In this document: in pieces, positions 9,645-64,000 of the stretch
How positions within the stretch are numbered: position 1 is the stretch's first letter
Layout of the letters: every line of letters starts with the position of its first letter
Source: Tubiluchus corallicola
Lineage: Eukaryota; Priapulida; Priapulimorpha; Priapulimorphida; Tubiluchidae
Assembly (NCBI GenBank): GCA_030141605.1
Contig: JAQGDQ010000106.1
Coordinates: forward strand, 372,001 to 436,000
Direction: 5' to 3'
DNA: 64,000 nucleotides
Notes under the pieces: generated by a model
Told to the model about the DNA's origin: nothing
The model's database searches: none
What the model saw: only the letters and a program-made list of their open reading frames with translations
Program-made: the position numbers and the translations under genes

Positions 9645-12600
9645 CTGAAAAAAATGAACTGTTAATGCAATCTACCACAAGTAACCACAAATAAATAATA
9701 GTGCAATTCCTGACACTGCCCATTTTCACTTCACAGATGCAGCATGTTCCTGAAAAAGAATGGCAAGCAATAATGATGCTTAGTCTCGCCTGGAAAAGTT
9801 TTCACTCCAACTCCAACCAACCACTAAATGACCAGGCTCAGTGTTCCTTAATTTTGATCAACAAGCTCATGCAATAATTACTCAGATTCATCTCGTTCTA
9901 CACATTATTTCTCTCAGTCTTTAATTTTCAGAAATAAGTACTAAATGTTAATTTTAAAAAAATTGCAAAATTACTTATTGATGCACACATACCATCGTGA
10001 TTTGATTTCTCAAGCTCTTCAGATAACTTCTTGGCTTCCTGCTTAGATTTCTCTAACTCTTTAGACAACTTCTGAATTTGCTCTACAGATCTGTCTCTCT
10101 CCTGTCGAGCTCTCCTAGCACTCTGTTTTTCTTCTTCGATTTCGTTATCCACATCATTACAAGCTTCTGTTAGACGATCTACATCTGCTTGTAGGCATTG
10201 ACACAGTTGTGACGCTTTTGCCAACTCCGAGCGCAAATTGTCACATTCACTGACTGCAGCTCTGGCTCGATCAGTTTCTTTATTTAAGGCGCTTCTTGCC
10301 TGTTGGACGTTTTCATCTAAATTTGCAAGTTTCTGCATGAGCTGCTTGTTCTCCGCATATAGTTTTTGCGACTCCTCACTTTGAACTGCTATGCTACATT
10401 TAGTACCACTTTGCTTAAATTTCTCTAGCTCTTCAGTCAAGTCCTTGGCTTGTTTTATAGCTTCATCTCTCTCTGCTCGAGCTCTCCTAGCACTCTGTTT
10501 CTCTTCTTCAATTTCGTCGTCCACATCATTACAAGCTTCTGTCAGACGATCTACATCTGCTTGTAGGCATTCACACATTTTCGACGCTTTTGCCAACTCC
10601 AAGCGCAGATGGTTGCATTCACTGACTGCAGCTCTAGCTTGATCAGTTTCTTTATTTAAGGCGCTTCTTGCCTGTTGGAGATTTTCGTCTAAACTGGCGA
10701 GTTTCTGCATGAGCTGCTTGTTCTCCGCACATAGTTTTTGCGACTCTTCACTTTCAACTGCTACGCTACATTTAGTACCAGTTTGCTTAAATTTAGCAAG
10801 CTCTTCGGTCAAGTCTTTGGCTTGTTTTATAGCTTCATCTCTCTCTGCTCGAGCTTTCCTAGCACTCTGTTTCTCTTCTTCAATTTCGTTGTTTAGATCA
10901 TTACAAGCTTCTGTCAGATGATCTGCATCTACCTGCAAAAACTCACATTTTTGAGAGAAATTTTCCAACTCAATGCGCAGACTGTCGGATTCTTGAAGAG
11001 CAGCGGTAGCTCGTTCACCTTCTCTTTTCAGATCAACTCTTGCTTGCTGGAGGTCTTCTTTTAGATTGGCATATTTCTCAATATGCATATGCCATTCGTT
11101 TTCATCAGGCAGTTTTTGCGAATTGTCACTTTGGACAACATCGTTATTTTTACCCTCAGCCTTGTCGGGTACTTCTATCTGCTTTTCTTGTTCATGTATT
11201 TTAAACTTCAATTTATTAATTTGTTCTTCCGCATCAGCAAATTCATTGCAAGCTGCAAGGAGTTCTTTATTTTGTTTTTCCAAATTACCACATTTACCTG
11301 TTTCATTTGAAAGTTGTTTACCAAGTTGTTTAATACGTTCGTTTAGTGTTTCCACTTGTTCTTGCAAACCAGCTTTTTCCACTTCAACTGCTTTCATTAA
11401 ATTATTCCTTTCTTCTACAAGAGTCCGTAATGTATCTAATTGCTCTCTGAAACAATTTAACTGATTTTCTAATTTAAGGTTTTCTCTTTTGAGTGTTTCA
11501 ACTTCTTCGTTGGCAGTATCAATTTCATCATAGGTACCTTTTAATCTATCAACCATTTCCTCTGCAGAATTCCGCAGTTCCACTTCAACTCCCAATTTTC
11601 TAGTAAGCTCATCAATATCAGAATTTAATTTTGCAATATTTTCTCGTAGGGCATTTTTCTCATCTTCAGCTGCTTTCAACTGTTGATCTTTATCATCTAC
11701 CAGACTTAGCAATTCTTCCTTTGCTGCTTCAACAACCTTCAGTTCTTCTCTGAGAGTTGACATTACTTGTTCTAGGTTCGCAAAGCGCAAAGTTCTCTGT
11801 TCATTTTGTTCTTTTTCATGGTTTAATTCTTCACGGACGGAAGTTAAATCTTTTTCCAAGTTTTCTTCTACTAACATTTCTGCATCCACCTGCTTCTGCA
11901 ATAAACACTTTTCTTCTCGCAGCTTTGCCATTGCTGTTTCTTGTAACTCCACAACTTTGTAAGTATTATCACGAGACTCCTTCAATGCCGTTATCTCAGC
12001 TTCTAGCCGAGTGCGAGCGTCACACATTTCTTCCATGTCAGTTTCAAACTGATTACGTTGTGCCACATTAGCATCTTTTAATTCTTTTTCTGCATTCTCC
12101 AGTGTTGCAATTCGCTCCTTAAGTCCCGTCTGTACTGCACTTTTATTAGTTACAGCAGCTTCATATTCAAGCTCAAGACTTTTCAACTTCTCCTGCTGGT
12201 TATCCACTTCAGCTAATCGATCGTCATATCTTATTTGCAGTTCAGAAAGCTGCGCTTCAAATTCTTTGCACTTATCTACAGCTTCTTGTAGCTGTTTCTC
12301 AGTAATTTGCAGCTGAGATACATGTGCTGTGCAGCTTTCTTCCATTGACTGAAACTTCATCTCAAGAGCTTCCTTGGACATTTTCAGTTCACTTACATCG
12401 GCCAGTTCAACTTCAAATTGATACTGCAGTGTCGCATACTCTGCTTCAGCTTTTCTTCTGCGATCATATTCAGACTGCAGTTGTGCATCAAGTTCTCCAA
12501 CTTTCCTCCTTAAATCATCAACAACAATGGCAGTATCTTTGTTATCATGCCATGCAACGGTTTTATCTAGTTTTGATGATAGTGCACCTTCGGCATTTAA

Positions 12601-15600
12601 GTTTTTACATCCTTCTTGAACACTTTCTACATCAGTACCATCCAACTGACTTCGCAGTGAGCTTATGTCATGGTCTAGACTAAGTACACAACTGGCGGCA
12701 TCACGCAGCTTCTCATTCTGTTCTATCAACGCATTATTCTGCTCTGTAAGTGTATCTACATCACTTCTTAGTAGTTCAGTTTGATCAGCCAAATCTTCAC
12801 TTAACTTCTTCAGCTTTTCATTTTCTTTCATAAGATTTGCACAGTCAGTAACTACTTCTTTGTTTTTAACCACAAACATTGTGTGATCATCAGCCTCAAA
12901 AACACATTTGTTGGCAGCATATTCAGTGTCCACATCAACTGTTTCATCTTGAGAAACAGTTAATCTTTTACCTTGATGAAGATCTTGCTTGCTGAGAAAT
13001 TTATTGGTTTCTATGTCCAATGCATTTGTCATGATGGACGTATCTGGATCAGGAACCAAATCCATTTCACTAAAAAGACCTTCTGATAAAAACTTATTTC
13101 CTTGGTCAAACCCTTGTAACTGCAATGCTAATTCATCATTCCTCTTCTTTAGTTGTACTACCTGTTCGGCTAACTCTTCATTTTGGCAAGACATTTTTTC
13201 CAAGCGTGCAGAAATAACTGGGTTTTCTAAAGCCTCCTTAAACAATTTCTCATTCTTGGCAACCAGCACCTCCATACGTGCAGTTAAATCTGCATTTTTA
13301 TCGGAGACTTGACGACATTCCTCTAACAATTCTTGATTTCGAACTGTTGCCTCAGTGCACCTTGTGAACAGCATTTCGTTTTCATCTTTTATTGATGCAA
13401 TCTGACTGACAAGTTCTTCCTTACCGAGCACTAACACTTCCTTTTCCGACAGCAGCTGCTCATTCTTCTCAGTCAGCTCCTTGACAATTAGTGAGGCTTC
13501 CTCATTAATAGAGGTTAGTTCCGCAATTTGCAATGATAATCTTTCGTACTCCTCTTGATCACGGAAAGATTGTGCATGTTCATTGCATTGCTTCAACAAG
13601 GCAGTTAAATAGTGTGCAACCTGACCTCTTTGTCGTGGTAAATCCAGTGACGCTACATATTCACTCACTCTTTGAACAAAATTATTAACCTCACGAGCCT
13701 CAGTCAGCATGTCATCAATTTGCTTATCTTGCATGTTTAGCCTTTCACGCAGTTCCTCATTAATGTCAACATCTTCAAACTGTTCATCATCTTCTAGCTG
13801 TTCGTCAATGTTAACTTCCTCCACATCTTCCTCATTTCTGGCTCTTTCCTCGATTCTCCTGTTCAACTCTTGAATCTCATTTGACAATTCTTGGTTTACG
13901 TTTTTAAGCCTTTCTACCTCTGCAACCAGGTGTGCACATTGCTCAGGCGGATGCGCCATAACACTTGCTTTCTCGACCAATGCAGATAAAACTTCACATA
14001 TAATAACTTTATCATCGCTTTTCTTAACTAAGTCTGTCAATTCAACTGCCATTGTTTCACCAACCACAATTTCATTATTTTGAACAGTCATTTCGCTGGG
14101 CATTTCTTCACAAGCTAATTCTTGTGCATCATGAAATTCGTCACAACAGTTCAACTTGCTTTTGTCTGTATTCTCAGCATTATTGATATTACCTAATGTC
14201 CACAATGATAAATTCCTTTGCTCATTGGTATTAGCAGCATTATCACTATACGTCCTCTTTTGTTCAAATGGCACGTTCCTGTTATCATTCTCTATCTGAC
14301 ACAAAAGCTCTAAATTTTTAGTTTGCAGATCTTCCAACTGCAATGCCAAAGTTTCATTCAACTGTGTTTTTTCCTTGATAAATGTAGACAATTCTTCTGT
14401 TTTGCAAACCAATGCTTCTTTTTTTGTAATCAAAATGTAGTTATTTCGTGCAATATCTTCAATCTGTTTTGTATATTCCTCCTTAGCCTTTTTTCCATCC
14501 TGTTCCTGTATAGAAAGCAAGCCATTTTTGTTTACCAGTTCCTCAATCTGATTTGACAGCTCATTGTTACAATCAGCCATCCGCTGCACCTGATAGTCAA
14601 GTGCACTTTTTTTAATGTTCAAGTCATCAAGCTGGTTAGATAATGATTTACAGGTACTAGTCACGTGTTCTATCTGTTCAAAAAGCAATTTGTTTTCTTT
14701 GGTAAGATCAGTAATCTGTTTTGAGAGTTGATCATTTTCTGTTAGCAAATCTATCACGTGTTCAGAATTCTCTGCACATTTCTTTTTTTGCTCTTCTGAA
14801 CCATGAGCCGTATCTACCACTACCAAATCCATTGACACCGGCTGATCTTCCTCGGCCACGTGATTAATTAAGGATCGACAAACAGCCAGAATGTCGCCCG
14901 CATCTTCTTCATCACATATACATGTCTCGTATTCTGACAATACAAGGCTTTCCCGTCTTGCTTTGAAATCGGACAGCTGCTTAACGATATCATCATACAT
15001 GCCTGATATGGTCTTTACCTCGAAGCACAATTCTTCATTCCTACAACATAATTTGGCATACTCGTGTGAGATTTCATTAATTTCGATAGAGAGCTGTTCG
15101 TTTTTCATAACCACGTTGTCATACTTGTTTGTGATTTCACTTATTTTTGCGCCCAGTCGCTCGTTGCTTTCACCTGCTTCTGCAGTTTGTGTGAGCAAAT
15201 CTTCATTTTTCTCCATCAGTTCATTCACTTGGCAAGTTAACTCAGTAATCTTCATGTTTGCATCTGTCAATTGTTCAACCAGGACATTATCAGATTCTGC
15301 TGCTTTCTGCTCATCGATAGCAATGCCCACATCTAACATCCCATCCTGCTGAACAAATTCATGCATTTGTGTGCCAACATCGGTTTTTGATGGCACAAAA
15401 GAGATGGTCGGCTGCTCATCTGTAATAGCTTTCAATTTGGTTTTTAACTGCTCATTCTCATCTTTAATGGTCTTCAGGTGACTTTTAATGGTTTCTAATG
15501 AAGGCAATTGTTCTGCTGAGGATGAAACATTCCAATTAAATAATGACATCAAATCCAATAAAACTTCACTGCTATCTGTTAATGTCTTTTTCTCGGGATA

Positions 15601-18600
15601 TTCTGTAGTAGAGTGTGCTTCTGCATTCATTTGAAATAATTCCTGCAAAATAATAAGAAAATGCTGAAAGTGTCTTCTAAAGTTAAACAGGCTTATCGAA
15701 ATGCATATAACTACTTAAATGCTACAATAATCTAGTAAAGATCACACAATCAAACCAAATTTTTAGCACTTTTTACTAAAAAAATAATGCTTGTACTGCA
15801 TAATAAAAAATGATCAAAAAATTCTTGGTTATTGCAGAAAATTTATTACCCTGATGACATTTTTGCTATAATAAGAATTTGAGAGCTCTACAACATTCAA
15901 CGATATAAGGTTATCATAAATTAAAAACCGTGACTAATTAAGAGCAGTATGATACTTAGCAAAAACTAAATCTTTGCAGATTCTTTTCAAAATATTAACA
16001 AGATATGTAACGATCAGATTCTCAATACCTGTCTTTTTAAATATTCAGGTAAACTGTAAAAAACTTCCCACTTCCTGACATTTTCTAACATAGCTTTTAG
16101 TGCCCTTTCAAAATTTTCTTTCTTATTGTCCTTGAAGATCTAATCACTGAATCACTAGATAACTATGACGATCTTATGTCTGAACTACGCATACGTATAA
16201 TGTGGAATATACCTTGCGTAATCTGCTTTATTAAACATTGTATAAATTTGTTAGTCTTGTCAAAGCTACTCTATCAAAAAGCAAGGAAATGCATAACAAA
16301 TATTAAAGCCAGTGTCACATAATTGCACTTTCCAACAAAGGGGGGAACACCAAAAACTCTCCAAAATCTTTATGAGTCACTGAGTCTGGGCGTTGTTTTG
16401 GAGAGTTTTTGGTTTCTCACATTGTGTTCCTCTTGGTTGGAAAATGCAATTATGTAAAAATTGTGTATTATTCTTCTGATGCTTACTGTAATTATTTCTA
16501 CTCCCATTATGTAGACTTTGCTTTTTGCTAACTATTTGTTTGCAGGTTGTTGTGATATTTGTCGAATCTGATATATTAGCTACTGTTTTTACATTTTCTT
16601 TATGTGAGAATCTTTGATATTCTGGCAATTTAAATTCACTTTTGTGTAAATGTGTAATGATATCATATGTCTTGGTAAGTAGTGTCGTAAATTGTACTGA
16701 ATGTATCCTTTGTCTTGATTCCAGCATTGAAAATAACACATGCTGTCGCAATGATCGTTTGCGCTAATAAACACTATGTAGAGCTGAATTATTCAAGTTT
16801 GGCAGATAGCATTTGGATTTTAAATAATTAAAAGCAGGTCAATTTGGAAGATATTCCTCATTTTCAGCATTTTAAAATGGCAAAAACTGCCAAGCATTAA
16901 AACAACTTAAATATAAATATATTAGACGCTAGCCAAAAATTAATAATAAGTAGCTTCACTAGGTTAAGCTGAATAATAGCAGAGCAGTTACACATTTATC
17001 AGATATTATCATAAAAGCAGTTGAAACTAGTTTCATACCTTCTCTTTTTGTAACTGTTTAACTTTAGCTTGAAGTTTCTCATTTTGCAAAGAAAGCAGTT
17101 CCTCTTCTGCTGCACGTGTGGCATTTACATTTTTAATCTCTTGTTGAAAGCTAGACAATTTATCTCTCAAACTACCAACTTCTTTTATCTGCTCACGTGC
17201 AAGATCCAACTCCTTTTGCAAGTTTGCTACCTAAAAAAATGTACGCTGTTCTGTAAATAGCACTGTAAATAACAGTTTAACCATACGCAAACTGCATTTG
17301 GCAGCTTTTCTTTACAAGGCCAGCTGCCACTAAGTGACGCTACGGTAGCACAATGAAAATACAAATACAGGTGCAGAAAAATAGAATTCTTATAAAAATT
17401 TACTAATGATAGGAGTTATCTGTTGATCATTCCAAAACAATAGGGTATTTACAAAAGCAGCAATGTTATTAGCAGCTGCTATACCATCTCATATATATCA
17501 AGCAATTCAAACATTTGTCAATTCTTCACAATGATTACAGACAAGTAAAATATTAGAAAGCATATCTTGATGAATAACAAAGAAATTAGTTCCTAGCTCT
17601 ATACATGTCTAGAGAATATAAAGAAATTAAGAAAAATAACAAGTAAACTTGAAAGGGAGTGTAAGAAAAATAATTAGTAAATTTCAAAGGGAATGTAATA
17701 ATACCTTCATCTTTGTACAATAAGTTTTCTAGGACCAAAACAAATCAACCTGTCAATGTAAAAACTTCTGCCACTATCTACTACAGTGTCCTACACATTT
17801 TGCTACAAATGCAACTTCAAATAAAGCAATGAAATTTTGTCTACAACATACCTGTTCATCTACTTCACATTCTTGTTCTAACCTCGTGAATTCACGCAGT
17901 TCCTCATATGACAGTTCCAACTGTAGCTTTTTGTTTTCAAGAAAGTCTTTCTCCTTCTCTCTAAATTAGCAAACAACAAAATAATGACGTGACTTACAAG
18001 CAGTAGGGAGCATGAATGTTGCACACTACACTAACTAATTAGGTTGTCTAGTACATTGATCATAAGAAAAAAAACATTCAAATTAAACTGGGTGCAGAAT
18101 TTTGAAACCTAGCTTGCTCAAAAAATAAGGAAATGTGGAAAAGTAGGGACACAGTATGGATTTGAAACTGGGACTTCCTGCTTAAAAAACAAATGACATG
18201 ACTGCTAAACTACCATGTCCTAGTGATTATGACAGGTCCTAATTCAGACATTACAGCTGGCCAGCCAATTGAGCTTTTTCAAGGTTTGTTGATCTGTCCA
18301 AATGGCTTTAATGGCTCTACGTTAAAAGAAAACATTGTTAATTCATTCAGAACTGAGGCAGCCACATTGTTACAGCGCTAGTCACCCAACTGTTATGATA
18401 TCATCTCTTTAATGGTGCGCAGTGTCATGTACCCTTACTGTTGCAGTTTCTGCACTGTGATGTCACAGAATTTTCCCATACAAAAATATAGTTACTCTAG
18501 TCAAACAATAAAAACCAAAACATGTTACATGAACGAAGACAGCATTGAAGCAAAACAAGTCTCTTTATAGATTACTTTGCAAGCAAGTAACTAAAAAATG

Positions 18601-32867: not shown

Positions 32868-33242
32868 GCACAGCAGGCAAACCAGAAGCAGGGCACCTTA
32901 TTCGCGTTCTTCTTGGGGAAGAAGCACAGTAGGCATACCCCAGGCGAACCAAAAGCAGAGCACATGTTTCTCATTCTTCTTGGGGAAGAAGTGCTGCAGG
33001 CATTCCCCCACGCCCAGCAGGCATCCCAAGGCGAACCAGAAGCAGGGCACGTTTCGCGTTCTTCTTGGGTAAGAAGCACAGTAGGCATACCCCAGGCGAA
33101 CCAAAAGCAGAGCACATGTTTCTCATTCTTCTTGGGGAAGAAGTGCTGCAGGCATTCCCCCACGCCCAGCAGGCATCCCAAGGCGAACCAGAAGCAGGGC
33201 ACGTTTCGCGTTCTTCTTGGGGAAGCAGCACAGCAGGCATGT
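32868..33242. repeat. Minisatellite array A with 153-bp higher-order repeat
   Basis: The unit is about 65-88 bp and contains GCGAACCAGAAGCAGGGCAC, TTCTTCTTGGGGAAGAAG and CAGGCATTCCCC. Copies of the GCGAACC landmark start near 32875, 32944, 33032, 33097 and 33184. The two-unit block starting at 32944 recurs almost exactly at 33097. Each unit holds the palindrome CTTCTTGGGGAAGAAG. Both strands happen to be open through much of the array; I treat this as an effect of repetition and higher GC, not as genes. Confidence 0.9.
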
Positions 33243-33465
33243 GTGAGCACTATGGCTTCAGTTGTGCCAACACTCCCCCTGTTACATTGGTTATACCTAC
33301 TTGTGACGTAGGCATTACTATTTACTGTTAGCCAATGCCCAATCTGGGCTTGCCTGATATAGACAGCTGTAACGTTGCCATTTTAAGCTGATGAGCCTAT
33401 TACTGTTTCCAATAAAATAGCATAATTTGGATAAATTTGTGCAGTTCTAGTGTTTCCTGTTAGTA

Positions 33466-33845
33466 GTGTTGCAGGCATTCCCCCAGGAGAACCAGAAGTG
33501 GGCACCTGCTTCCTGGGTAAGAAGCACAGCAGGTATTCCCTCAAGCGAACCAGAAGCAGGGTACCTGTTTAGCCTTCTTCCTGAGGACGAAGCACAACAG
33601 GCATTCCCTCAAGCGAACCATAAACAGGGTACCTGTTTCACCTTCTTCGTGAGGACGAAGCACAAACAGGCACTCCAAGCGAACCAGGAGCAGGGCACGT
33701 GCTTCGTGTTTTCATTGGGGAAGAAGCACAGCAGGCATTCCCACAGGCGAACCAGAATTAGGGCACGTTTCACATTCTTCTTGGGGAAGAAGCACAGCAG
33801 GCATTCCCACAAGCGAACCAGAGGCAAGGCAATTGCTTCGCGTTC
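33466..33845. repeat. Minisatellite array B, same family as array A
   Basis: Six more copies of the same unit, with landmarks near 33487, 33545, 33613, 33677, 33747 and 33813 (spacing 57-70 bp). They are separated from array A by about 220 bp of unrelated sequence. These copies are more diverged and lack the 153-bp dimer order seen in array A, though the AAGAAGCACAGCAGG core persists. Confidence 0.88.
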
Positions 33846-33978
33846 TAGCAAGGTTAAGAATTTTCATTTAACCTTAGACATTTGAAATTCAAGTTTCAAT
33901 ATAAAATAATTGTTTCACTTGGAAAGCTATTTTCGATACATGCTAAAGAAATCTACACAAGGATTATTGGCTGCATGC

Positions 33979-51539: not shown

Positions 51540-52400
51540 ATGTGATATTCTTAAATGGCAGCAGTACTAATTTTGATTATATTGTGACATCAAGATCTGT
51601 TTATATTTTTTGATCAAGTTAAAGTAAGAGCTAGATGTTACTTCATTTGGCAGTGAGTTCCATAATGTGGCATCTTTACATCTTAGAGAATTTTGGCCCA
51701 TACTAGTATTGAATCTTTCAATGAAACATGACTGACTATATGCAAATCTGGTTGCGTAACGTTGTACAGTAGAAGCTGCGTTATAATAATTTAAGAATAG
51801 AGATGGCAGCATTTGGTGTTTAAATTTTAACATAAACTTTGCCAGTTCGAGCTGGCAAGTGTCCTGAAGTTTTAGAAGGTTGAGATTAAAATATAGAGGT
51901 GTCATGTGGTCCTGTCTATTAGAGTAAGTCATCACTTGTATCATACGGTTTTGTGCTGAGGTTACAGAGTGGATTGTTGTGGCAGCAGCGCAGCCCAAGG
52001 CTAATAAGCAGTAGAGTAAATGTGGTATGAATAGAATTGTATATAATAGCCTAATGGATGAAGAATCTAAGTAATATCTAACTCTGTATGCCAAGCCAAT
52101 AACTTTGCTTATCTTATGTGAAACATGCTGAATATGTGATTTCCAGGATAGCTTTGAGTCAACCAATACACCTAAATATTTCACTTCATTTGTGTGCTCA
52201 GTGGTATTAGTACCCATTTTAACGTTAATATCAGGTTCATTTTTGCGATTAGTGATAAGCATGTATTTAGTTTTTTAAGTGTTGACAGATAATTTGTTGG
52301 CTCTTAGCCACTCATTTATTTTCATCAATTCTTGGTTAACAGAAGTTTCTAAGGCTGTTATTTATCATAAATAAATTTGTGTCATATGCAAATCGACGTT
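51540..52400 (-). mobile_element. Truncated, inactive LINE reverse-transcriptase fragment
   Basis: A 231-codon frame at 51567-52262 encodes a non-LTR retrotransposon ORF2 C-terminal region, with NEVKYLGVLVDSKLSWKSHI and FIPHLLYCLLALGCAA typical of CR1/jockey-like elements. Upstream the match continues with breaks: KINEWLRANKLSVNT, an in-frame stop, then after a frame change FAYDTN at about 52379-52392, where active enzymes have F-A-D-D. Sequence upstream of this point is lost, so the copy is 5'-truncated as is usual for LINEs. It has at least one stop, one frameshift and a lost catalytic Asp. Confidence 0.88.
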
Positions 52401-52996: not shown

Positions 52997-53481
52997 AAGA
53001 AGAAGAAAAAGAACATTTGTGTGCTATGTTTTGAGAATAAATGGCAAATATAGACAATGTAGACAATATAAGCAACATTCCTCACTAAATGATGTTATTT
53101 TCAGTGACTTGTCGTGACAATAGCCAACAGAATTGCCTTAAAACCTTGCAAAAACCACCTGGCAAATCAAAAACAAGTTGGGTAGCTAAAATAAATTAGA
53201 TAAATAAAGATGTTCAATAACTTCAACCAAAGCTAGCTACATTTATGAGCAGAAGATCTTACACTGTTAGCCACAGATAGGTGATGGTGGAATACTCTAA
53301 GGGTAGTATAAGACGAGGATTTTGTTTTTGAAAAAAAAATTTTATTTGGCTTTTTAGTAATTACTGAATAGTAACACTGAGTAACCATTTGGAGAAAAAT
53401 ATGCATAGTTAATCGAGTCATATGATTTTAATATAAATTGAATGTACATATCTGCATTGTGGTTTAGCATAATATGCAAAA

Positions 53482-56400
53482 ATGGCGTCAAACCAACCTC
53501 GGGCAAGACCTCGTCTGTTTAAAACAAAATCTGAGTTAGATCGTAATTTTCAGGACTTCCTCCAAGAGGTGAGTTACATTCTGAATTTCGTCAATTTATG
53601 TTGTGATTTATTTATTTGTGATACAGAATCTGGCATTACAAAAAGTGTGGCGGATAAATGTCAGCTCGATTTTAGTGTTGTCCGAACTGTTTTGAGTAAA
53701 TTTTACAAAACGAACAATCTATTATACTAGCAAACCAGCCAAAAAGGAAAAATTAATTTTGATGCATTGTCTTCCAATCAGCATTCAGCGGTGAATCTTA
53801 GTTAAATGCCTTACTAATATAATAAAAAGATGTTTGCTATGCATACCTTTTAATAAACATCACTTACTTCATCTTTGCTAATTTGGCAGTTAGATTAGGT
53901 TTGTAGTTTTTTAGGTTTGATATTTACTGGCTTAGTTTTCACCTATTTTTTTGTTTAGACCTTAGAAGAATTATGGTTGTTAGACTAACAAATGTGTTGA
54001 TTCTTGAGTTCAGGAATTAACCGTGGGAATGTGGAAAACTCATTTTCTTTTTTGTCTGTTTTATGTTATTATGTTATTTCTCTTCAAGCTGTGTGTCATT
54101 GATTTTATCATTCCTGGCGCATTGCTAAAGAATTGCGGAAACATAAAAATTGGGAAACGCAAGTTGGTAAGCAATTTGCAGAAAAGCTGAATAAACAACA
54201 AGTGAAATCTAATCAGATTTTTTAACAGGCATCCTATTTTTCCAGCCCCTTTCTTCAGATGAATCTGCAGATATTCCTGTTACTGCGGAAACCAAGGAAA
54301 ACGACAAAAAAGATTCAAAGCAGTTGAATTTGGATTCTGATTCAAAACCAAAACCATGGTGGCTAAATGATTCAAACAAGAAACAAGGAATACCACTTGG
54401 TGACGACGGTCAGTATGTAAAAATATAACTGATTTATAAAATCAGATATTACAGTTATGCAGTTTGAATGGTAAGTGTACTACAGTAGTGGCTGCTTAAT
54501 AGACTCATATGACCCAATTAACCAATGGGTGTAGTATTACTGCTATAGAAGTATGAGTCATCAGCTTACTATGCATTGCAAAGGCTTTTAATCAGTTTTA
54601 GAAACGAAGTAATGCCTAAATTATTTTGGGCAGTTAAATGGGTTTTGATGTGCATTATAATTGTCACTTATTGTACTGTGTTTTCAGGAATTTCTGTGAG
54701 TCTATCAGGTAAAGTGTTTAGAACTGCAGCTGAACAATAAGTAAGAATATATTAATTATGATGAAAGTAATAATGCTGAACTGGACAGGTGGTACATAAC
54801 CCTTTGCAAGGGGTACAAAAACAAATAATAATAGAGAACAATTTATTACGACAAGGCATTGTTCAAACATTTGTAAATCTGTCATGCCTACAAAATTTTT
54901 TGTAGAAACCTCATACGTCTCACACAACCTTCAGTCTTGAAAGTGTGATTGGTGCAGTAACACAAAGAACTCAAGATCTGCCAACACATTTTATAGATGT
55001 CTAAATGTTGAATGCTGATCATATTTTTTGATCATCTTATCGTCCACTTTGTCTTTCTGGATAAGTCCAGTGTGACTGAGGTTCAGTGAATTTTGAAGCC
55101 ACTCAGTTCAATTGAAGAAATTAATTCCAGAGTTATCCGTTCTCTGCTCCGATCATACCCCCCAAACTGCAGGCTCTGGGAGACATGTGCGGCTAAAGGG
55201 TGTGTTAGATTCTCTATCATTTTAGCAATTCCTTGATGTAATTAATTGTTCTGTGCTGTTAATTGTTATTCTGTACCCTTCGCAAAACGTTATGTACCAC
55301 CCTGCATATTGAATCCATTTAAGTATGAAATGGATGTAAGTAATTAGTATTTTTTGATGTGAACTGCCCAGCTTGATTACAGTTATGGAGAATCTGTGAA
55401 GTGTCTGCAGCTATGGTTTTCAACCCTTTTAGGCTCTGGATCATCCACCAAGAAGAGTAAATTTCTTAAGTCGCCAAAAACAACTACAGCAAAAAAGACC
55501 TCAAAAGAGTCTTCGGGCTATGCTCCTACACTGCAGGCAGCATCCTCTGGTGGCAAACAAGGTTCTGAAAGCAAGAAGAGGACAGTCACTTTCTATGCGA
55601 GGTGCCAGTATATTGATATTTTATACAGAATTTGTACGTTTAACCAATGTTTGGTACATGACACATGATACGAAATACACGAAGGGCTGCTATTCCATAT
55701 TTGAATGAAAGAAACAAAACTTTAGACATTTACAAAAACACAGGAATGAAATGAATGAAATTTTGAAAAACTAATAGCAATGCACGAAAACCAACATTTA
55801 TATAGGAACAAAAACTTATATGACAGTGCATTAAATAGTTAATAATGAATAAAATTAGAATATTTTCTACCGACACCGCTGACTTTAAGACACTATGATA
55901 CACAGCTAAGGGAAACATGTGGTGCTATCCGGCACCAAAATAGGTCATAAGGGAAAAAATTGTTAAACTATTTATTTACTGATATATCCATTTTTAGTTC
56001 TGCTTGTTAGACATTTGTTAGGCCAATTATATCCAGTATGCTAAAGAATATAAGATCTAAATAGGCACTAAGTACTTTTAATATGCCACTAAAATATTTT
56101 TTTCTCAGAAAAGATAATTACGACAAAGTTGAATGTGCTAATTGCGATAATATGTGTAATAATATACTGATAATTGCATGGTAATCGTTTCACAGATATT
56201 TGCAAAAATAAAAAATAATGTAAATATTTTTAAGAACAGTTAGTATCTGACAAAAAGTTGTAACTGCTCATGGAAAGAAAGAGCCATCTAAGCCATAGAA
56301 ACTGACAGCCTGCTTTTGTTGATATGATTAACATAACCTCAAGCTTGGCATGTATGAATTGCAAGAAGATTTTAATTTCCTTTCCAATGTAGATAAAGTA

Positions 56401-59400
56401 GATGTAGATACATGTAGATGCTGAAGAAAGTAGATGATAATGCATGTAGTAGTTACAGCAGTAGTAGTAGATGTAGGTGCTGCAAAAGTAGAACAAGATT
56501 TAAGGTAGATGAGAAAAAAGTAATTTTTCATTTTGGGAAATATATTACTATGCGTCATAATGATCTTTTAATATCATTGCTGCTCTTCTTGGCTATTTCC
56601 TAGTAGAGAATGGCTGTATACATATAAGTTCATTGATCAGACAGCCAGTATGGTGCAGTGCAATACAAAATTACAGTAGTTTTTCTTTAAAAAATAGGGT
56701 TTGACATTATGGAACATTTTTTTAAAGCAGACAGTAGTACAAACTACGATATTCTTTCTTTTCTTTTCTTTCCTTTTGTCATGTTGTTCATGTCATGTCA
56801 TGTTACCTCGTATAGTTTGTTGAAAATGTTGGGACAATAGTTGACTTTTCAAGAACCTCAGAATCTAAAATAAACAATATATAACTAATGAGCACATCTC
56901 CTGTTTACTGCTGTCACAGAGTCACAGGCCATGTATAATGTAACACTACTGCTTCAGTTGTTGATTCTGACTTTATTATTATTACATTATTGTAAACAGT
57001 TAAAAATGTGACATATGCAATGTATTTTAACCTTTGCTGACCAATTTAGTTCTGCTTTAATTCAGTTTTTTTTTATTAATAGATCTATTTAAACTCTTAA
57101 TAATTGGAACAGCTAAAAATCTGTTTTGTACACCTTTTTAGCACTGGTATACAAATCCAAAATTTATGTTTTTTTGCTATTGTATAGAAAACAAAAGCTG
57201 TTAAAGGTTTATTGCGATCATTTCTCACAATTGAAATTTCATAAAACTTTTTGATATTACGCCCAATTTTTGTAGTTTCTGCCTAATAATCCATTGCTTA
57301 CAGCATAAATTTTATTATGAAATTATATATGATGGAAATATGACAAACATTTCACAAAAGTGCAAATTTGATGTAATACTGTACTGCTCCATCATGGCAG
57401 TTTATTTGCACTTAATTATTCTAGTCTAGCCCTGTAGACTGTTCAATAAAACTATGGTCGATTTGCAAGAAATTTTGTCAAAACTTGAAGTAAAGTTCAA
57501 TGTATTTACAAATGCTAGCTTTTTTATTGATTATTCTTTCTGCAAGCAGTTCTGTGTTAAGGATGCACGTACAAGTATAATGTTTTGAAAGTCTTGAAAC
57601 ACAATACTTAATTTTTTGCAGTGAAGTTAAAAATGCAGCAGCTGATGATCCAGATGAGCCAACAGGACAAAGGAGTGGTGAACATTTTATTAAATCAGCA
57701 AAACCAGTGTTGGATACACCAGCTATTCCTGCTCACAGCAACCTTAAACAACTGTCTCGTGACCTTGATGATGATAAACCTAAAGAAACCATGCTTTCAA
57801 AGGTTGCACTGCTCGATTCACTTGACTCCACACTCAATCTGACGCAGACATTGGGCACGTCACTGAAAGGTGGGCTGCCTAGCATACAGCAATCATATAC
57901 TGAGCTGCTTGCTTTGTTTCTTAATATTGGACTAATAGTAATTATAATCTGTTAATTGTATTAGTACATTGCTAACTACCTCCTATTCAGTGGGGAAACA
58001 TTGAATGTTTCTTTATTCTCTTATTCATCTTATTCACCCTTTGACTTCCACTTTTCAGTTTCTCCTAAATAGTATATTTCCGCATATGTCACTGTGTGCG
58101 AGCCAAGTACTATACATTGTATTATACATTTGGTATGGTACATGGTAAGTATTTTGGAGAGGGAAAGATTATCTTGTGTTCACAGTTGCTCAGCAATTGT
58201 TGACGTTTGTCCTGTGATACGTTCCTGAACTTTTGCTGTTCTTTATTTCAACTTAGAGCATTCAAACTTGTATTAGGCTGTTGGCAATGTTGGATAGTAA
58301 AGTCTAGCTCACATGTAGCTCTGAAGTGACATAAGTCTGTGTAAACCAGTTTTCAATTGGCCATAACAGTATTGTTTATACAAAGAAATTTTTTTGGTGT
58401 TTTAAAATCCTGTAGCTAAATCTTTAGTTTGTATAGTCAGTAATGGGAAGCTGAACTGAACAATGTTCATTTTAATAGCATTACCTCAATTTCGGACTGA
58501 GTTGAACGTTTCTTAATTAAAGTTTATTCTACTGTGTAAACAGTTGACATGCATGATTTGTGCACATTAGGCGAGATTGATTTTTAATTGTATTTATGCT
58601 AAAAACATGCAATTTATTCCTTGTTTCACTCATCATCCTTAATCCTCGGCCACCCAGAAATGGAGTGCAAAGATGCCCTAAGTATCTTTATTTCATTATA
58701 CCATTTTGCCATTAAGCTGCCAGTACCTGTTCTTTTCTGTGTTTAAATAATGGTCTGTATATTATAAGCTGGTGTCATCACCTTTGATCTTTCGTCACTT
58801 TCATTATATTTATTACAAATGCGGCATAGTGTATTTTCACCCCAGTGCAGGTATTGCTGTCATACTGACTTTCTCCATTAATTAGTATAGTATAGTATAG
58901 TATAGTATAGTATAGTATAGTATAGTATAGTATAGTATAGTATAAAAATTAGAAAGTAAACAAATGCTAAATATTTTATAGTGTGGGTAGGCTGGCTTTG
59001 AAATTTACTGTTGTTGTGGAAAAATGGTCTATGTTAGGCCTTGGAGGTCTTATTAATTAAAGTAACATAATTCACTAAATAAAAACATGCCTTCTGACAA
59101 TTTTCTTTGTATCATTTTTCATGTTTAAATTTAACACAGCATATGTCAATATAGCAGAGTAGTCAAATATGTTGTAGGCTGACTAACAGAAGTGAATCTG
59201 AAGCTGTGCAGTAGCGTTTCTTCTGCATTTATGCATAGAGTGCAATTTCACCTCATTGCCAATATTCATGGGACTATGATATAATTCTGGTGGCCGAGGA
59301 TTAATCTTTGTTATTTGTTAATATGACATCTTGTGAAATGTGAAGAGAATGACCACTTTATCTCAATTATATTGGGCATCTAAAATACATTGTTCAGATC

Positions 59401-62400
59401 TTTTATCTTCATTTAAATTATTTGAAACAAATTAAAGTTATTAAAACCAATGAAATGGAATACTAAAATAATTTTTCCTTGTTGACTGTACTGCCTGAAG
59501 CTTAGGTACCTAAACTAAACATTTGTAGCATTTTATTTGTTTAGAAAAATATCACCAAGCTATTCGGGTACTGCAAAGAACAGTTGCTGAAATCTAACAA
59601 ATAATGCAGATTTTTGGATAAACTTTATTTTATTAGATGCACAATTAGACACAGGCAGAGCAAACAGCAAGCTTGGTGTGGATCGTGCCAGCCCAGATGC
59701 TAATGGTGATTCTTCTGACAGTCAGGCATCACAAGTTCTAGCTCCCACTTCTAGTACATTACAAACTGCCTCATTATCACCAAGGTAGAAGTTAATTCTT
59801 GCCTATTTTCACTGTGTACTGGCTCACCCTCAGAAGCTGGTATTTCGTTTTAATTCGAGACGATTGCATCACTCTGCTGCTGAATTTTTTGATAAGTTTG
59901 ATAACACAACTTGAAACATTCATTTTGTCGTTAGTATAGTTTGTGGTAAACACAAGTGTAATTTATGTTAAAATATTTAGAGTGATACTATTCTGTTATG
60001 AAGCAGACTTTTGGACTGGTGTCAAAACTTGTGAATAAATTCAAATTTTCTAATTTTTTACAATTTTATGGGTTTATTTTGATGTTGTAGTTAGCTTTAT
60101 TAGAACAAATTTTTACATTGTTGTAGTGAACACAAGATTGGGGATCAAGCGAGTGATGTTGATAGATCAATGGACTCTTTAGAGAAAGGATTTCAAAGAG
60201 GCCAGGCAAGAACTTCAGAACCAGCTCCTGAAGTTAGAGACACAGTGGCTGAAAGTCATAAAAATGAGGTGGGACAAAGCGGAGACAGTTTTGGAAATAT
60301 GGATGACATTGTAAATATTCTGAATGATGATGCAAAATTTACAGAATTTGGTGGTATTGGAGATTCCTTAATAGGGGCAAAAGTTGCAACAAGCGACCAA
60401 AAAATTACACATCTGAAGGCGGAAAGAGGTGATAAAGAGACAGTGTCTATTGATCATTCCAGTGCTCTTCCTAGTAAACAGATGGGTATGTCAAATCGAA
60501 GCCATCTTGTACCAAAAAGGAGAGATCAAGATCTCAAAGAAGCCCTTCTTTTTCAAAAACCAAATGAGCAAGACCTGTTTAGCAGGCAGACACTGGACAC
60601 CAGTCACGTTCAGCTCACAGATGATATTCTATCAAAGGTCACAGAAATTGATGTTCACAATCAGGGACAAGCAAAAAGAGATACATCACCCGAACATTCT
60701 GGAACTAGATCTAAAAAATCTGCTGGAACCAGCCATGAAAGTGTCAACAAACTGGTGAATAAAAAATGATACTTTCTTATTTGTTGAAAGTGTTTTACAT
60801 GAGTTACAGTCATAGTAATCATATCACAATTAGCTTTTCACACTGATGTGAAATGATTTTTATAAATACAGCTTTGATAATTTACATATCTCCAATAATT
60901 TATTCAAAACTATCACAAAATGGGCTAAAGTTCTTCTTCTTAACATTAAATAACCATTGATTAGTTGTGTGTATAATTATTTAAAATGCAAAACGAATAA
61001 GCAAACTACTGTATGGTTTAGCCAGAGTAGTGGTCTGCTAATAGTAGATTAAGAATAAGAACAGAATTAAGAACAGGGCATCTCTACGAATGGGGGTAAG
61101 AAGGGTCTCTTAAAAAATGTTACGTAGCTCTCTGCTTCCATTCCAAATGGTTCTTCTGAATCAAATACTTGTAAATATGATTAGAATCGTTGTCTTCTGG
61201 AATTTTCAGGTATCAAGTGGAAAGACTTTACATTCTTCACCTAGCTTTGACCCATCAGAGAAAGAGGTTGAAGTTGATAAGAAGGTGTTGGCTGCTTATC
61301 AGACAGAGAATGAAAAACTGTGCAGAAAAGTGAGTAACCTTGATTTTTCCAACTTTTACATCAAAAAATGAAAAACTGTGCAGAAAAGTGAGTAACCTTG
61401 ATTTTTCCAACTTTTACGTCAGAGAATGAAAAAACTGTGCAGAAAAGTGAGTAGCCTTGATTTTTCCAACTTTTACATCAAAAAATGAAAAACTGTGCAG
61501 AAAAGTGAGTAACCTTGATTTTTCCAACTTTTATGTCAGAGAATGAAAAAACTGTGCAGAAAAGTGAGTAGCCTTGATTTTTCCAACTTTTACATCAAAA
61601 AATGAAAAACTGTGCAGAAAAGTGAGTAACCTTGATTTTTCCAACTTTTATGTCAGAGAATGAAAAAACTGTGCAGAAAAGTGAGTAGCCTTGATTTTTC
61701 CAACTTTTACATCAAAAAATGAAAAACTGTGCAGAAAAGTGAGTAACCTTGATTTTTCCAACTTTTATGTCAGAGAATGAAAAAACTGTGCAGAAAAGTG
61801 AGTAGCCTTGATTTTTCCAACTTTTACATCAAAAAATGAAAAACTGTGCAGAAAAGTGAGTAACCTTGATTTTTCCAACTTTTATGTCAGAGAATGAAAA
61901 AACTGTGCAGAAAAGTGAGTAGCCTTGATTTTTCCAACTTTTACATCAGAAAATGAAAAACTGTGCAGAAAAGTGAGTAACCTTGATTTTTCTAACTTTT
62001 ACATCTGAGAATGAAAAAACTGTGCAGAAAAGTGAGTAACCTTGATTTTTCCAACTTTTACATCAGAGAATGAAAAACTGTGCAGAAAAGTGAGTAACCT
62101 TGATTTTTCTAACTTTTACATTAGTTACAATTTAAATATAAAATTCTTGAATCACTAAGCTAAATACAAATTATAAGGCTGAATACAAACCTTGTGTAAT
62201 TATCTCTCTGTAGGTGTGGCTTAAGTATTTTTAGCTTTTTAATTTCCTTTGACTGTTCAAAGCAAATTAGTTTTTAAGCAACATTATGTTGAATCAAAAG
62301 CAACCTAATAACTTCTAACAAAAGAAGTCTTAAACACTAATAACTTCTTTCAAAAGATGCATGCCAATAAATAAAGTAATATGTTTATTTGCATCTAAAG

Positions 62401-63485
62401 TGAAAGCTTTGTAGCCAAATGCACACTGCATTCAGCATTTTTTTAAATTTTTTAACAAGATTAAAGAGATTGAGTTGACAAGGAAACAAGATGAGACCCG
62501 GATGATGCTTGAAAATCAGCAGCTGCAGCAACAACTTGCCCTTGCTCGGTAAGTAATTAATTATATGTGCAATGCATAATGACTTCATTAAAAAGCTGTG
62601 TTTTTCCATTATACAAACTTTGGAGTATATTTTACTAATTTACAAATGCGAAGTGACAATAAATAGGTGAGGGAGGATTGTAGTAGTCCTTGACCTTATT
62701 ATCTTTAGTACACATTTAGTATCTATTTACTGTTTAAGGCAAATAAGTGTCTTTTTGTGAAAATTAATGCTATTCGTTGGTATGGAAAACAAGTTGCATT
62801 TACACAAAGGAGTGTTCATTAATAATGTAAAAATTGTAACAGAATAAGAAAATATTTTTCTGTTATTCAGGGAGGAAACAGAACGAAAAACAACAGAAGC
62901 ATTTCAGGCAAAGAAAGATCTAAACCAGAAGGTAACTTCTTTGCGGCAAAGCAATATGAATCAGCAGCAGATGGCTAAGATATCTCTTCTAGAAGCTGAA
63001 CTTCAAATGGCTCAGGTAACCACTAATGTGCACATATTAAAAAAATCAATTTATATTTTCATTTTACTAGATGCATGCAAGCATTTATCACTGAGGTAGC
63101 TGCTATCGCCTGTGGTTAAATTTATGCTTTGTCTCCAGAACTGGTTATTGTGAGCATCGTTTCAATAATGCACTTCATCAAATAGCAAAGACTAGTGACC
63201 AGAAGAGGTGACCAGTACTTTTAACAGCCTACTGACTTTTCTAAAAAAATATGGAGACATATATATATATCATACTTGATAATTTTCTGAGCTAAGTAAC
63301 TGTGAAGGAAAATAATTTGTTTTATCTAGGAATCAGAATGTTCGTTAAAGGAACAAGTGTCACAGTTGCAGAATGCAATAACGAACAGAGAAACTCAGCT
63401 TGTTACCAATTATGAAGAAAAATTGGGAAGCAAAGAGGAGAGAATTGTGAAATTACGGCAAGACTTGCAAGCTGTAGAGGAGCAG
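53482..63485 (+). CDS. CEP162: CEP162-like ciliary/centrosomal coiled-coil protein, N-terminal part
   Basis: Eleven exons: 53482-53568, 54246-54408, 54688-54708, 55433-55601, 57622-57869, 59637-59784, 60127-60754, 61210-61329, 62460-62548, 62871-63015, 63330-63485. They total 1974 nt (658 codons) with consistent phases, and the gene continues past the window. Order: basic N terminus (RPRLFKTKSELDRNFQDFLQ), acidic-Ser segment, KPKPWWLND at about residues 64-72, a KSKFLKSPK stretch, MLSKVALLDSLDSTLNLTQ, a long disordered Ser/Asp region, then coiled coil from exon 8 (NEKLCRKIKEIELTRKQDET; TERKTTEAFQAKKDLNQKV). An N-terminal F-x-x-F-L, Pro-Trp-Trp and FLKS arrangement before a coiled coil fits CEP162 (QN1, KIAA1009), a transition-zone protein binding axonemal microtubules. 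The gene name is less certain than the gene structure. The ATG at 53482 is the first in its exon. Confidence 0.72.
54688..54708 (+). CDS. CEP162: 21-nt microexon of the CEP162-like gene
   Basis: Acceptor TTTTCAG is followed by a 21-nt exon and donor GTAAAG. It joins a phase-1 exon end (GAC G) and a following exon starting GC, giving GISVSLSG and keeping the frame. Because 21 is divisible by three, skipping it would delete seven residues without a frameshift. Confidence 0.75.
58639..59304. mobile_element. TTAA-flanked MITE
   Basis: TTAA at 58639-58642 is followed by TCCTCGGCCACC, and the element ends GGTGGCCGAGGA before TTAA at 59301-59304. The 12-bp arms are a perfect inverted match, and the match continues (CAGAA versus AGAA) with one gap. 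TTAA target duplication suggests a piggyBac-type mobiliser; a TA-duplicating Tc/mariner origin with a longer inverted repeat is the alternative. There is no transposase frame. Confidence 0.75.
58893..58944. repeat. AGTAT pentanucleotide microsatellite, about 10 copies
   Basis: A near-perfect run of the 5-bp unit AGTAT, inside the TTAA-flanked MITE. Confidence 0.97.
61304..62130. repeat. 14-copy tandem array of an exon end plus splice donor
   Basis: Starting inside exon 8 of the CEP162-like gene, a 58/59-bp unit repeats 14 times. Each copy carries the last coding bases (AATGAAAAACTGTGCAGAAA or the six-A variant) followed by GTGAGT and intron sequence. The G of GTGAGT falls at 61330, 61388, 61447, 61505, 61564, 61622, 61681, 61739, 61798, 61856, 61915, 61973, 62032 and 62090. 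Steps alternate strictly 58 and 59, so the true period is a 117-bp dimer. The array ends before exon 9 (62460). Confidence 0.95.
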
Positions 63486-63860
63486 GTGTCGATTAAGTTT
63501 TTTTTACATTTTTTCACGATTTGTGATCAGCTACTTGATTTACTTGACTGAGCTGTTGCTTATTCTGTTTTAGTCATTAGTAGCTGTACTGCTGTTGTTT
63601 ATAATGTCTCGCTAGTCACTATGAGATGCAGAATGTGTCAGCTGGATGCATATTTGCAAGCTGTGTGTCTTCATAAGGTTGAGAAATTCACTATTACATA
63701 GCTCTGTATGTTACAGAACTTTTATTTTTTGATTACACAAAATAGTAATTGCTTTCATATAAAAGTTTTTATTGCAAAATAAAGTATCTTAACAAATTTA
63801 GTGGTTTGAAATAAGTTAATGCAATTTTCTAAAAGTTCCATAAGACAGTGCAGCAGATAG

Positions 63861-64000
63861 TAGGGGTGAGCATTCTCTATTAGAAAGCGAATTCAAATCC
63901 AATCGAATTTTTGACTTTGGAACTCAAATTAAATCGAATAACAAGATTTCGATTCCGAATCTAATTCGAATTCAGTTTTAAAAATTTTCATATAAATGTT
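63861..64000. mobile_element. Possible end of a hAT-like or satellite-like element
   Basis: TAGGGGTGAGCATTC at 63861 is followed by a run rich in ATTCGAAT/AATCGAAT-type words up to the window edge. Such starts followed by TTCGAA-rich sequence are common in non-autonomous hAT elements. The other end is outside the window, so this is tentative. Confidence 0.35.

What the first reader, a model, noticed from the sequence alone, without database searches (positions are those of the whole stretch)
61304..62130. A minisatellite that multiplies a coding exon end and its 5' splice site 14 times
The array begins within exon 8 of the CEP162-like gene and each of the 14 units repeats about 26 exonic bases plus the donor GTGAGT. 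The first donor (61330) keeps the frame. Using any later donor would include TGA at 61369-61371, so it should give a truncated protein or a decayed transcript. The cell must choose the first of 14 almost identical donors, or the array could act as a splice-site decoy or dosage switch. The function is inference; the repetition is directly visible.
Basis: partly seen in the sequence, partly recalled or inferred. Interest (0 to 1): 0.75.

Follow-up and report, generated by a model that had tools for sequence, protein, structure and literature searches.

The report
Exon-end minisatellite with fourteen splice donors
A 58-base stretch that straddles the end of an exon and its splice signal is repeated 14 times in a row in what looks like an animal gene; this is real and a good natural test of how cells pick one of many identical splice sites, but it is most likely a tolerated accident, since the same genome holds similar arrays at exon ends of several other genes.

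Summary
Window 61304-62121 holds 14 tandem units of 58 or 59 bp. Each repeats the last 26 nt of a 120-nt coding exon (61210-61329) plus its donor GTGAGT. Units 2-13 form a 117-bp two-unit repeat; four of its dimers are identical, so expansion looks recent. All 14 donors are identical from -17 to +7. Extending the exon to any of donors 2-14 includes the stop at 61369-61371. The array is single-copy in the 343.5-Mb genome.

First, alternate units (3, 5, 7, 9, 11) also have an acceptor scoring like the gene's real ones, followed by a 24-nt open in-frame mini-exon (RMKKLCRK) and a donor; the units between have lost the AG. Second, the array is one of a class: of 17 AGGTRAGT arrays sampled in this genome, 8 begin at a coding exon end (HSP60, a dynein heavy chain, a Frizzled-domain gene and others). 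The donor word is itself a real donor about as often, so no special seeding is shown.

Best reading: a neutral repeat tolerated because the first donor works. A human precedent exists (IFI6, 1995). The decoy or dosage-switch role is unsupported. No RNA data were available.

The parts
61210..61329 (+). coding exon, 120 nt, phase 0 at both ends (VSSGKTLHS...QTENEKLCRK); its last 26 nt are the start of the array
   Evidence: acceptor TTTTCAG at 61209, open frame
61304..62121 (+). minisatellite array, 14 units of 58 or 59 bp
61330..61335 (+). first donor GTGAGT, the one that keeps the frame
61369..61371 (+). TGA in frame, included by every later donor
61362..62063 (+). six 117-bp dimers (units 2-13); dimers 4-5, 6-7, 8-9, 10-11 identical
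61423..61446 (+). potential 24-nt in-frame mini-exon of unit 3 (acceptor score 7.9)
61540..61563 (+). potential 24-nt in-frame mini-exon of unit 5 (acceptor score 8.5)
61657..61680 (+). potential 24-nt in-frame mini-exon of unit 7 (acceptor score 8.5)
61774..61797 (+). potential 24-nt in-frame mini-exon of unit 9 (acceptor score 8.5)
61891..61914 (+). potential 24-nt in-frame mini-exon of unit 11 (acceptor score 8.5)
62460..62548 (+). next coding exon (IKEIELTRKQ...), acceptor score 5.7

Best explanation
A recently expanded, probably copy-number-variable minisatellite. It was seeded by a chance 58-bp tandem duplication across an exon end and its donor and grew mainly in 117-bp two-unit steps. 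It is tolerated because splicing joins the first donor (61330) to the next exon (62460) often enough: the 120-nt exon with its own acceptor defines that donor, and transcripts that use later donors carry a stop and should be removed by nonsense-mediated decay. Shown: the array, the identical donors, the stop, the two-unit structure, and similar arrays at other exon ends of this genome. Inferred: that donor 1 dominates, that decay removes the rest, and that there is no benefit.
For: Identical dimers show recent growth. All 13 later donors give a stop. Eight of 17 sampled AGGTRAGT arrays of this genome also begin at coding exon ends, including HSP60 and a dynein heavy chain, and their share is about what the background of the donor word predicts (11,176 v 7,069 in the reversed control, about 37% excess; 5-6 of 11 AGGTGAGT arrays). 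The locus is single-copy. No structured RNA or inverted repeat is found.
Against: No RNA data, so use of donor 1 is not shown. With duplicated identical donors, the one nearest the downstream acceptor is often preferred in published test systems (general knowledge), which would harm this gene unless something favours donor 1. The amplified dimer is just the frame-safe pair (one unit without an acceptor, one with an in-frame mini-exon), which a purely neutral account treats as luck.
Confidence: 0.63

Rival explanations
1. Decoy or dosage device: later donors compete for U1 and a copy-number-dependent share of transcripts takes them and is lost to nonsense-mediated decay, so array length sets the amount of protein.
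For: Fourteen identical donors and a stop for each later one. VNTR length is reported to affect splicing in human TERT (PMC3948165).
Against: No sign of constraint. The same build recurs at other exon ends at the rate expected from background. No RNA evidence. Some leakage may exist without being a device.
Confidence: 0.15
2. Mini-exon cassette: alternate units are spliced in as 24-nt in-frame exons adding RMKKLCRK once or more to the coiled coil; each 117-bp growth step adds one more potential exon.
For: Acceptor scores of 7.9-8.5 against a median of about 8 for twelve acceptors assigned in the gene and 5.7 for the true downstream acceptor; the six-A run makes the mini-exon 24 nt and open; the A units have lost the AG. 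Donor 1 to the first such acceptor is a 93-nt intron.
Against: Exons this short are usually skipped without special enhancers (general knowledge). Units 12 and 14 have equally good acceptors but would shift the frame. The scoring matrix is generic and was written from memory.
Confidence: 0.08
3. The array exists but its copy number in the assembly is wrong (collapsed or inflated).
For: Four identical 117-bp dimers are hard to place with short reads; sequencing method unknown; no second haplotype held.
Against: Units are ordered with distinct edge variants (1, 2, 12, 13, 14) and the flanks are unique. Similar arrays occur elsewhere in the genome.
Confidence: 0.07
4. Helper sites: the extra U1-binding sites strengthen the exon end or block premature polyadenylation in this intron.
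For: Thirteen spare donors lie upstream of an AATAAATAAA at 62366-62375 in the same 1.1-kb intron.
Against: Such motifs are expected often in sequence this AT-rich; the intron is short; nothing here tests it.
Confidence: 0.05

Closest known systems
Human IFI6 (6-16, G1P3) minisatellite providing multiple splice donor sites (Turri, Cuin and Porter 1995, Nucleic Acids Res 23:1854; paper not held; described in PMC4526556)
   Same: A minisatellite at an exon end whose units each carry a donor, so that one exon is followed by many near-identical donors.
   Different: In IFI6 two downstream units are reported to be used as donors, giving three mRNA species. Here use is unknown, every later donor gives a stop, and alternate units also carry acceptors. 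Details of the IFI6 repeat could not be checked here.
Intron gain by tandem duplication (PMC2891723; PMC4974935)
   Same: A tandem duplication supplies new splice signals; in the potato case the duplicated stretch also crosses an intron-exon boundary.
   Different: Those cases duplicate once and give a new intron. Here a donor side is multiplied 14 times and no new intron is shown.
TERT intron 6 VNTR (PMC3948165)
   Same: An intronic tandem repeat whose copy number can alter splicing.
   Different: TERT repeats act by RNA:RNA pairing from more than 1 kb away from exon junctions. Here the repeats contain the splice site and no inverted pairing of 12 bp or more exists within the region.

Membership tests
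Minisatellite / VNTR | tandem units of roughly 10-100 bp, head to tail, highly similar | tested here: met
   14 units of 58/59 bp, 98% matches
Minisatellite / VNTR | copy number varies between individuals (VNTR) | not testable with these tools
   one haplotype only; identical dimers suggest it
IFI6-type donor minisatellite | array starts at a coding exon end and each unit carries a donor | tested here: met
IFI6-type donor minisatellite | more than one of the donors is used in mRNA | not testable with these tools
   no RNA data
Intron gain by tandem duplication | duplication supplies both donor and acceptor of a potential new intron | tested here: met
   donor 61330 to acceptor before 61423 encloses 93 nt; acceptor score 7.9
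Intron gain by tandem duplication | the new intron is spliced | not testable with these tools
   no RNA data
TERT-type pairing VNTR | repeats pair with other parts of the pre-mRNA | tested here: inconclusive
   no inverted repeat of 12 bp or more in 61200-62200; distant pairing not tested
CEP162 | sequence similarity of the gene product to CEP162 | tested here: inconclusive
   no Pfam match for the exons tried; name rests on recall

The most novel reading that the evidence does not exclude
The array is an expandable cassette of identical 24-nt in-frame mini-exons: each 117-bp growth step adds one potential eight-residue coding step without breaking the frame. More broadly, this genome repeatedly turns exon ends into multi-donor arrays that act as a running source of new exons and introns.
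Probability: 0.08. Interest if true: 0.8.

Novelty: new member of a known kind. Interest (0 to 1): 0.45.

Why it matters
Fourteen donors identical over 24 nt, in one intron and in native context, allow a clean test of position effects in 5' splice-site choice, separate from sequence strength. Similar arrays at other exon ends of the same genome (2 to 43 perfect donors per chain in my samples, 18 to 66 nt apart) would let one RNA-seq data set ask how donor number and spacing affect choice, decay and protein. It also shows how a tandem duplication at a splice site can create complete mini-exons, a possible route to new exons.

Tried and rejected
RNA structure as the reason donor 1 is chosen: unpaired probabilities are low and similar for all donors, and lower for donor 1 in windows of 150 nt or more; no inverted repeats. 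Known structured RNA: no Rfam match in 53000-64000. Dispersed repeat or transposon: one locus only. Second haplotype with another copy number: none held. Whole-array coding use: the exon's frame stops after 13 codons and recurrently after that, and no long ORF crosses the array on either strand. Selective constraint on the donor: about eight distinct unit variants avoid the 9-nt donor with probability about 0.26 by chance, so no case. Special seeding of arrays at donors: not needed once the background of the donor word is counted. The AAGTGAGT triple pattern, as in this array, is not enriched over its reversed control (431 v 489). Naming the species by a COX1 search failed.

Full report
What was checked. 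The array at 61304-62121 is real. TRF reports 61304-62118, period 117, 7.0 copies, 98% matches. Cut where the copies start (CAGAGAATG...) and end (...CTTTTACAT), it gives 14 units of 58 or 59 bp, each with a GTGAGT donor. A 31-base motif around the donor matches 14 times in the window and never in shuffles. The genome (343.5 Mb, 2344 contigs) holds the array at one place, and the flanking gene segment is also single copy.

Anatomy of the gene. The last part of the window carries, on the + strand, exons of a long coiled-coil gene. The exon concerned is 61210-61329 (120 nt, phase 0 at both ends), reading VSSGKTLHSSPSFDPSEKEVEVDKKVLAAYQTENEKLCRK. The next exon starts at 62460 with IKEIELTRKQ. The intron is 1130 nt, of which the array fills about 790. 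All 14 donors are identical from -17 to +7, so their local strength cannot differ.

How the array grew. Units 2-13 alternate between two kinds, A (58 bp, mostly CAAAAAATG, five-A run) and B (59 bp, mostly CAGAGAATG, six-A run), making a 117-bp two-unit repeat. Dimers 4-5, 6-7, 8-9 and 10-11 are identical, dimer 2-3 differs by one base, dimer 12-13 is more diverged, and the edge units 1 and 14 differ from each other by one base. This is the usual picture of a minisatellite that began as one duplication and then expanded by dimer steps, recently. The original event joined ...CTTTTACAT to CAGAGAATG...; no long homology is seen at the break.

What each splice site would do. Reading on from donor 1 gives VSNLDFSNFYIKK and then TGA at 61369-61371, so an exon extended to any of donors 2-14 carries a premature stop. 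The duplication junction created ...TTTTCCAACTTTTATGTCAG|AGAATG. Scored with generic animal splice frequencies (written from memory, used only for ranking), these acceptors reach 7.9 in unit 3 and 8.5 in units 5, 7, 9 and 11. Twelve acceptors assigned to the gene by eye range from -0.5 to 10.8 with a median of about 8. The acceptor of the next exon scores 5.7, and only 2.5% of all AGs in this region reach 8. In these B units acceptor and donor enclose exactly 24 nt, open in frame (RMKKLCRK), because the extra A restores a multiple of three. The A units of the amplified dimers have lost the AG. Units 12 and 14 keep acceptors but would give 23-nt frame-shifting exons. So the amplified dimer happens to be the harmless pair. 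That would fit selection on which dimer could spread, but one event is no test, and exons this short are usually skipped.

Does anything mark donor 1? Local folding does not: the unpaired probability of the 9-nt donor is low for all 14 and is highest for donor 1 only in the smallest window. No inverted repeats of 12 bp or more exist. The remaining reason to expect donor 1 is exon definition by the 120-nt exon's own acceptor. Published experiments with duplicated donors (general knowledge, not tested here) often favour the donor nearest the downstream acceptor, so the question stays open until RNA is read.

Is it unique? No. Pattern searches for three nearby perfect donors found many arrays: AGGTAAGT triples 1381 v 103 for the reversed control, AGGTGAGT triples 507 v 150. 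Much of this comes from a few dispersed families. I read the 5' edge of 17 AGGTRAGT arrays. Eight begin at a coding exon end, with the first donor of the array as the exon's donor: a Frizzled-domain exon (L051, Pfam Fz 1.8e-11), HSP60 (L083, 1.4e-20 to mitochondrial HSP60), a dynein heavy chain (L087, DHC_N2 2.9e-8), a maestro-HEAT exon (L091, 7.7e-5, below the family cut-off), and, by reading only, a phosducin-like exon (L040), a sulfotransferase-like exon (L092), a signal-peptide exon (L082) and a 99-codon open exon (L084). In most of them the unit repeats part of the exon tail as well as the donor. Two were unclear (L042, L093) and seven were not at exon ends. Seven AAGTGAGT arrays and 11 readable arrays of the reversed control word showed no sense exon end by eye. 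In six of the eight, most or all later donors give a stop or frameshift; L091 stays open in its 39-bp frame and L051 is partly open.

What that means. AGGTGAGT occurs 11,176 times and its reversed control 7,069 times, so roughly 37% of its occurrences are excess that I attribute to real donors. Of 11 AGGTGAGT arrays sampled, 5 or 6 sit on real donors, which is not more than this background explains. The data fit random formation of minisatellites, also across exon ends, with little net selection against them. That favours the bystander reading and argues against a dedicated switch in this one gene. The sample is small, follows contig order and needs perfect motifs.

Comparison. [quoted passage not shown] not held). 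A later paper states that two downstream repeat units are used as donors, giving three mRNA species. The present array has the same build; whether its later donors are used is unknown, and each would give a stop. Intron gain by tandem duplication (PMC2891723; PMC4974935) and the TERT VNTR (PMC3948165) are related in mechanism but not the same. I found no report of many exon-end donor arrays in one genome, but only open-licence papers could be searched.

Verdict. Observation confirmed; decoy or switch role not supported; most likely a recent, tolerated, probably variable repeat at a splice site, a new member of a known kind. Its value is as a natural experiment, increased by the finding that the same genome holds more of them.

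Noticed in passing
L040 = G000:C5:113500-116900 (- strand): A 33-bp array with 43 perfect AGGTAAGT donors starts at the end of a phosducin-like exon (GKQLEDLNLDELDELEDEEDERVLHMYR); every later donor includes a stop.
   Followed up: partly
L051 = G000:C32:103500-104800 (+): A Frizzled-domain exon end (…LKCENYPSKCE) and its donor are repeated in 42-bp units; the first read-through unit is open in frame.
   Followed up: partly
L091 = G000:C338:43240-44000 (- strand): A maestro-HEAT exon end is repeated as a 39-bp unit that is open in frame (VSRHQENPFPITQ) while carrying a donor each time; it could be read as coding repeat or as multiple donors.
   Followed up: partly
G000 contigs C17, C38, C46, C63, C92, C96: A dispersed minisatellite family (42 to 60 bp, AGGTAAGTCAAATGTAGACA...) carries perfect donor-like words and accounts for much of the AGGTAAGT excess.
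   Followed up: no
G000 contigs C2 and C14: AGGTGAGT sites recur with identical spacing on C2 (about 1.23-1.35 Mb) and C14 (about 0.20-0.32 Mb), which suggests that C14 is a duplicate haplotig of part of C2.
   Followed up: no
window 9928-15714 (- strand): A 1928-codon open frame of coiled-coil type with a 372-bp (124-codon) in-frame tandem repeat near its end at 10094-10930.
   Followed up: no
window 32874-33846: Dense minisatellites of 67, 85, 134 and 152 bp with a shared core (CTTCTTGGGGAAGAAGCACAGCAGGCAT).
   Followed up: no
window 51567-52274 (- strand): A 235-codon open frame that reads by eye like the end of a non-LTR retrotransposon reverse transcriptase; no Pfam match at E 1.
   Followed up: no
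window 58883-58944: A perfect TAGTA pentamer array, 12.4 copies, in the same gene.
   Followed up: no
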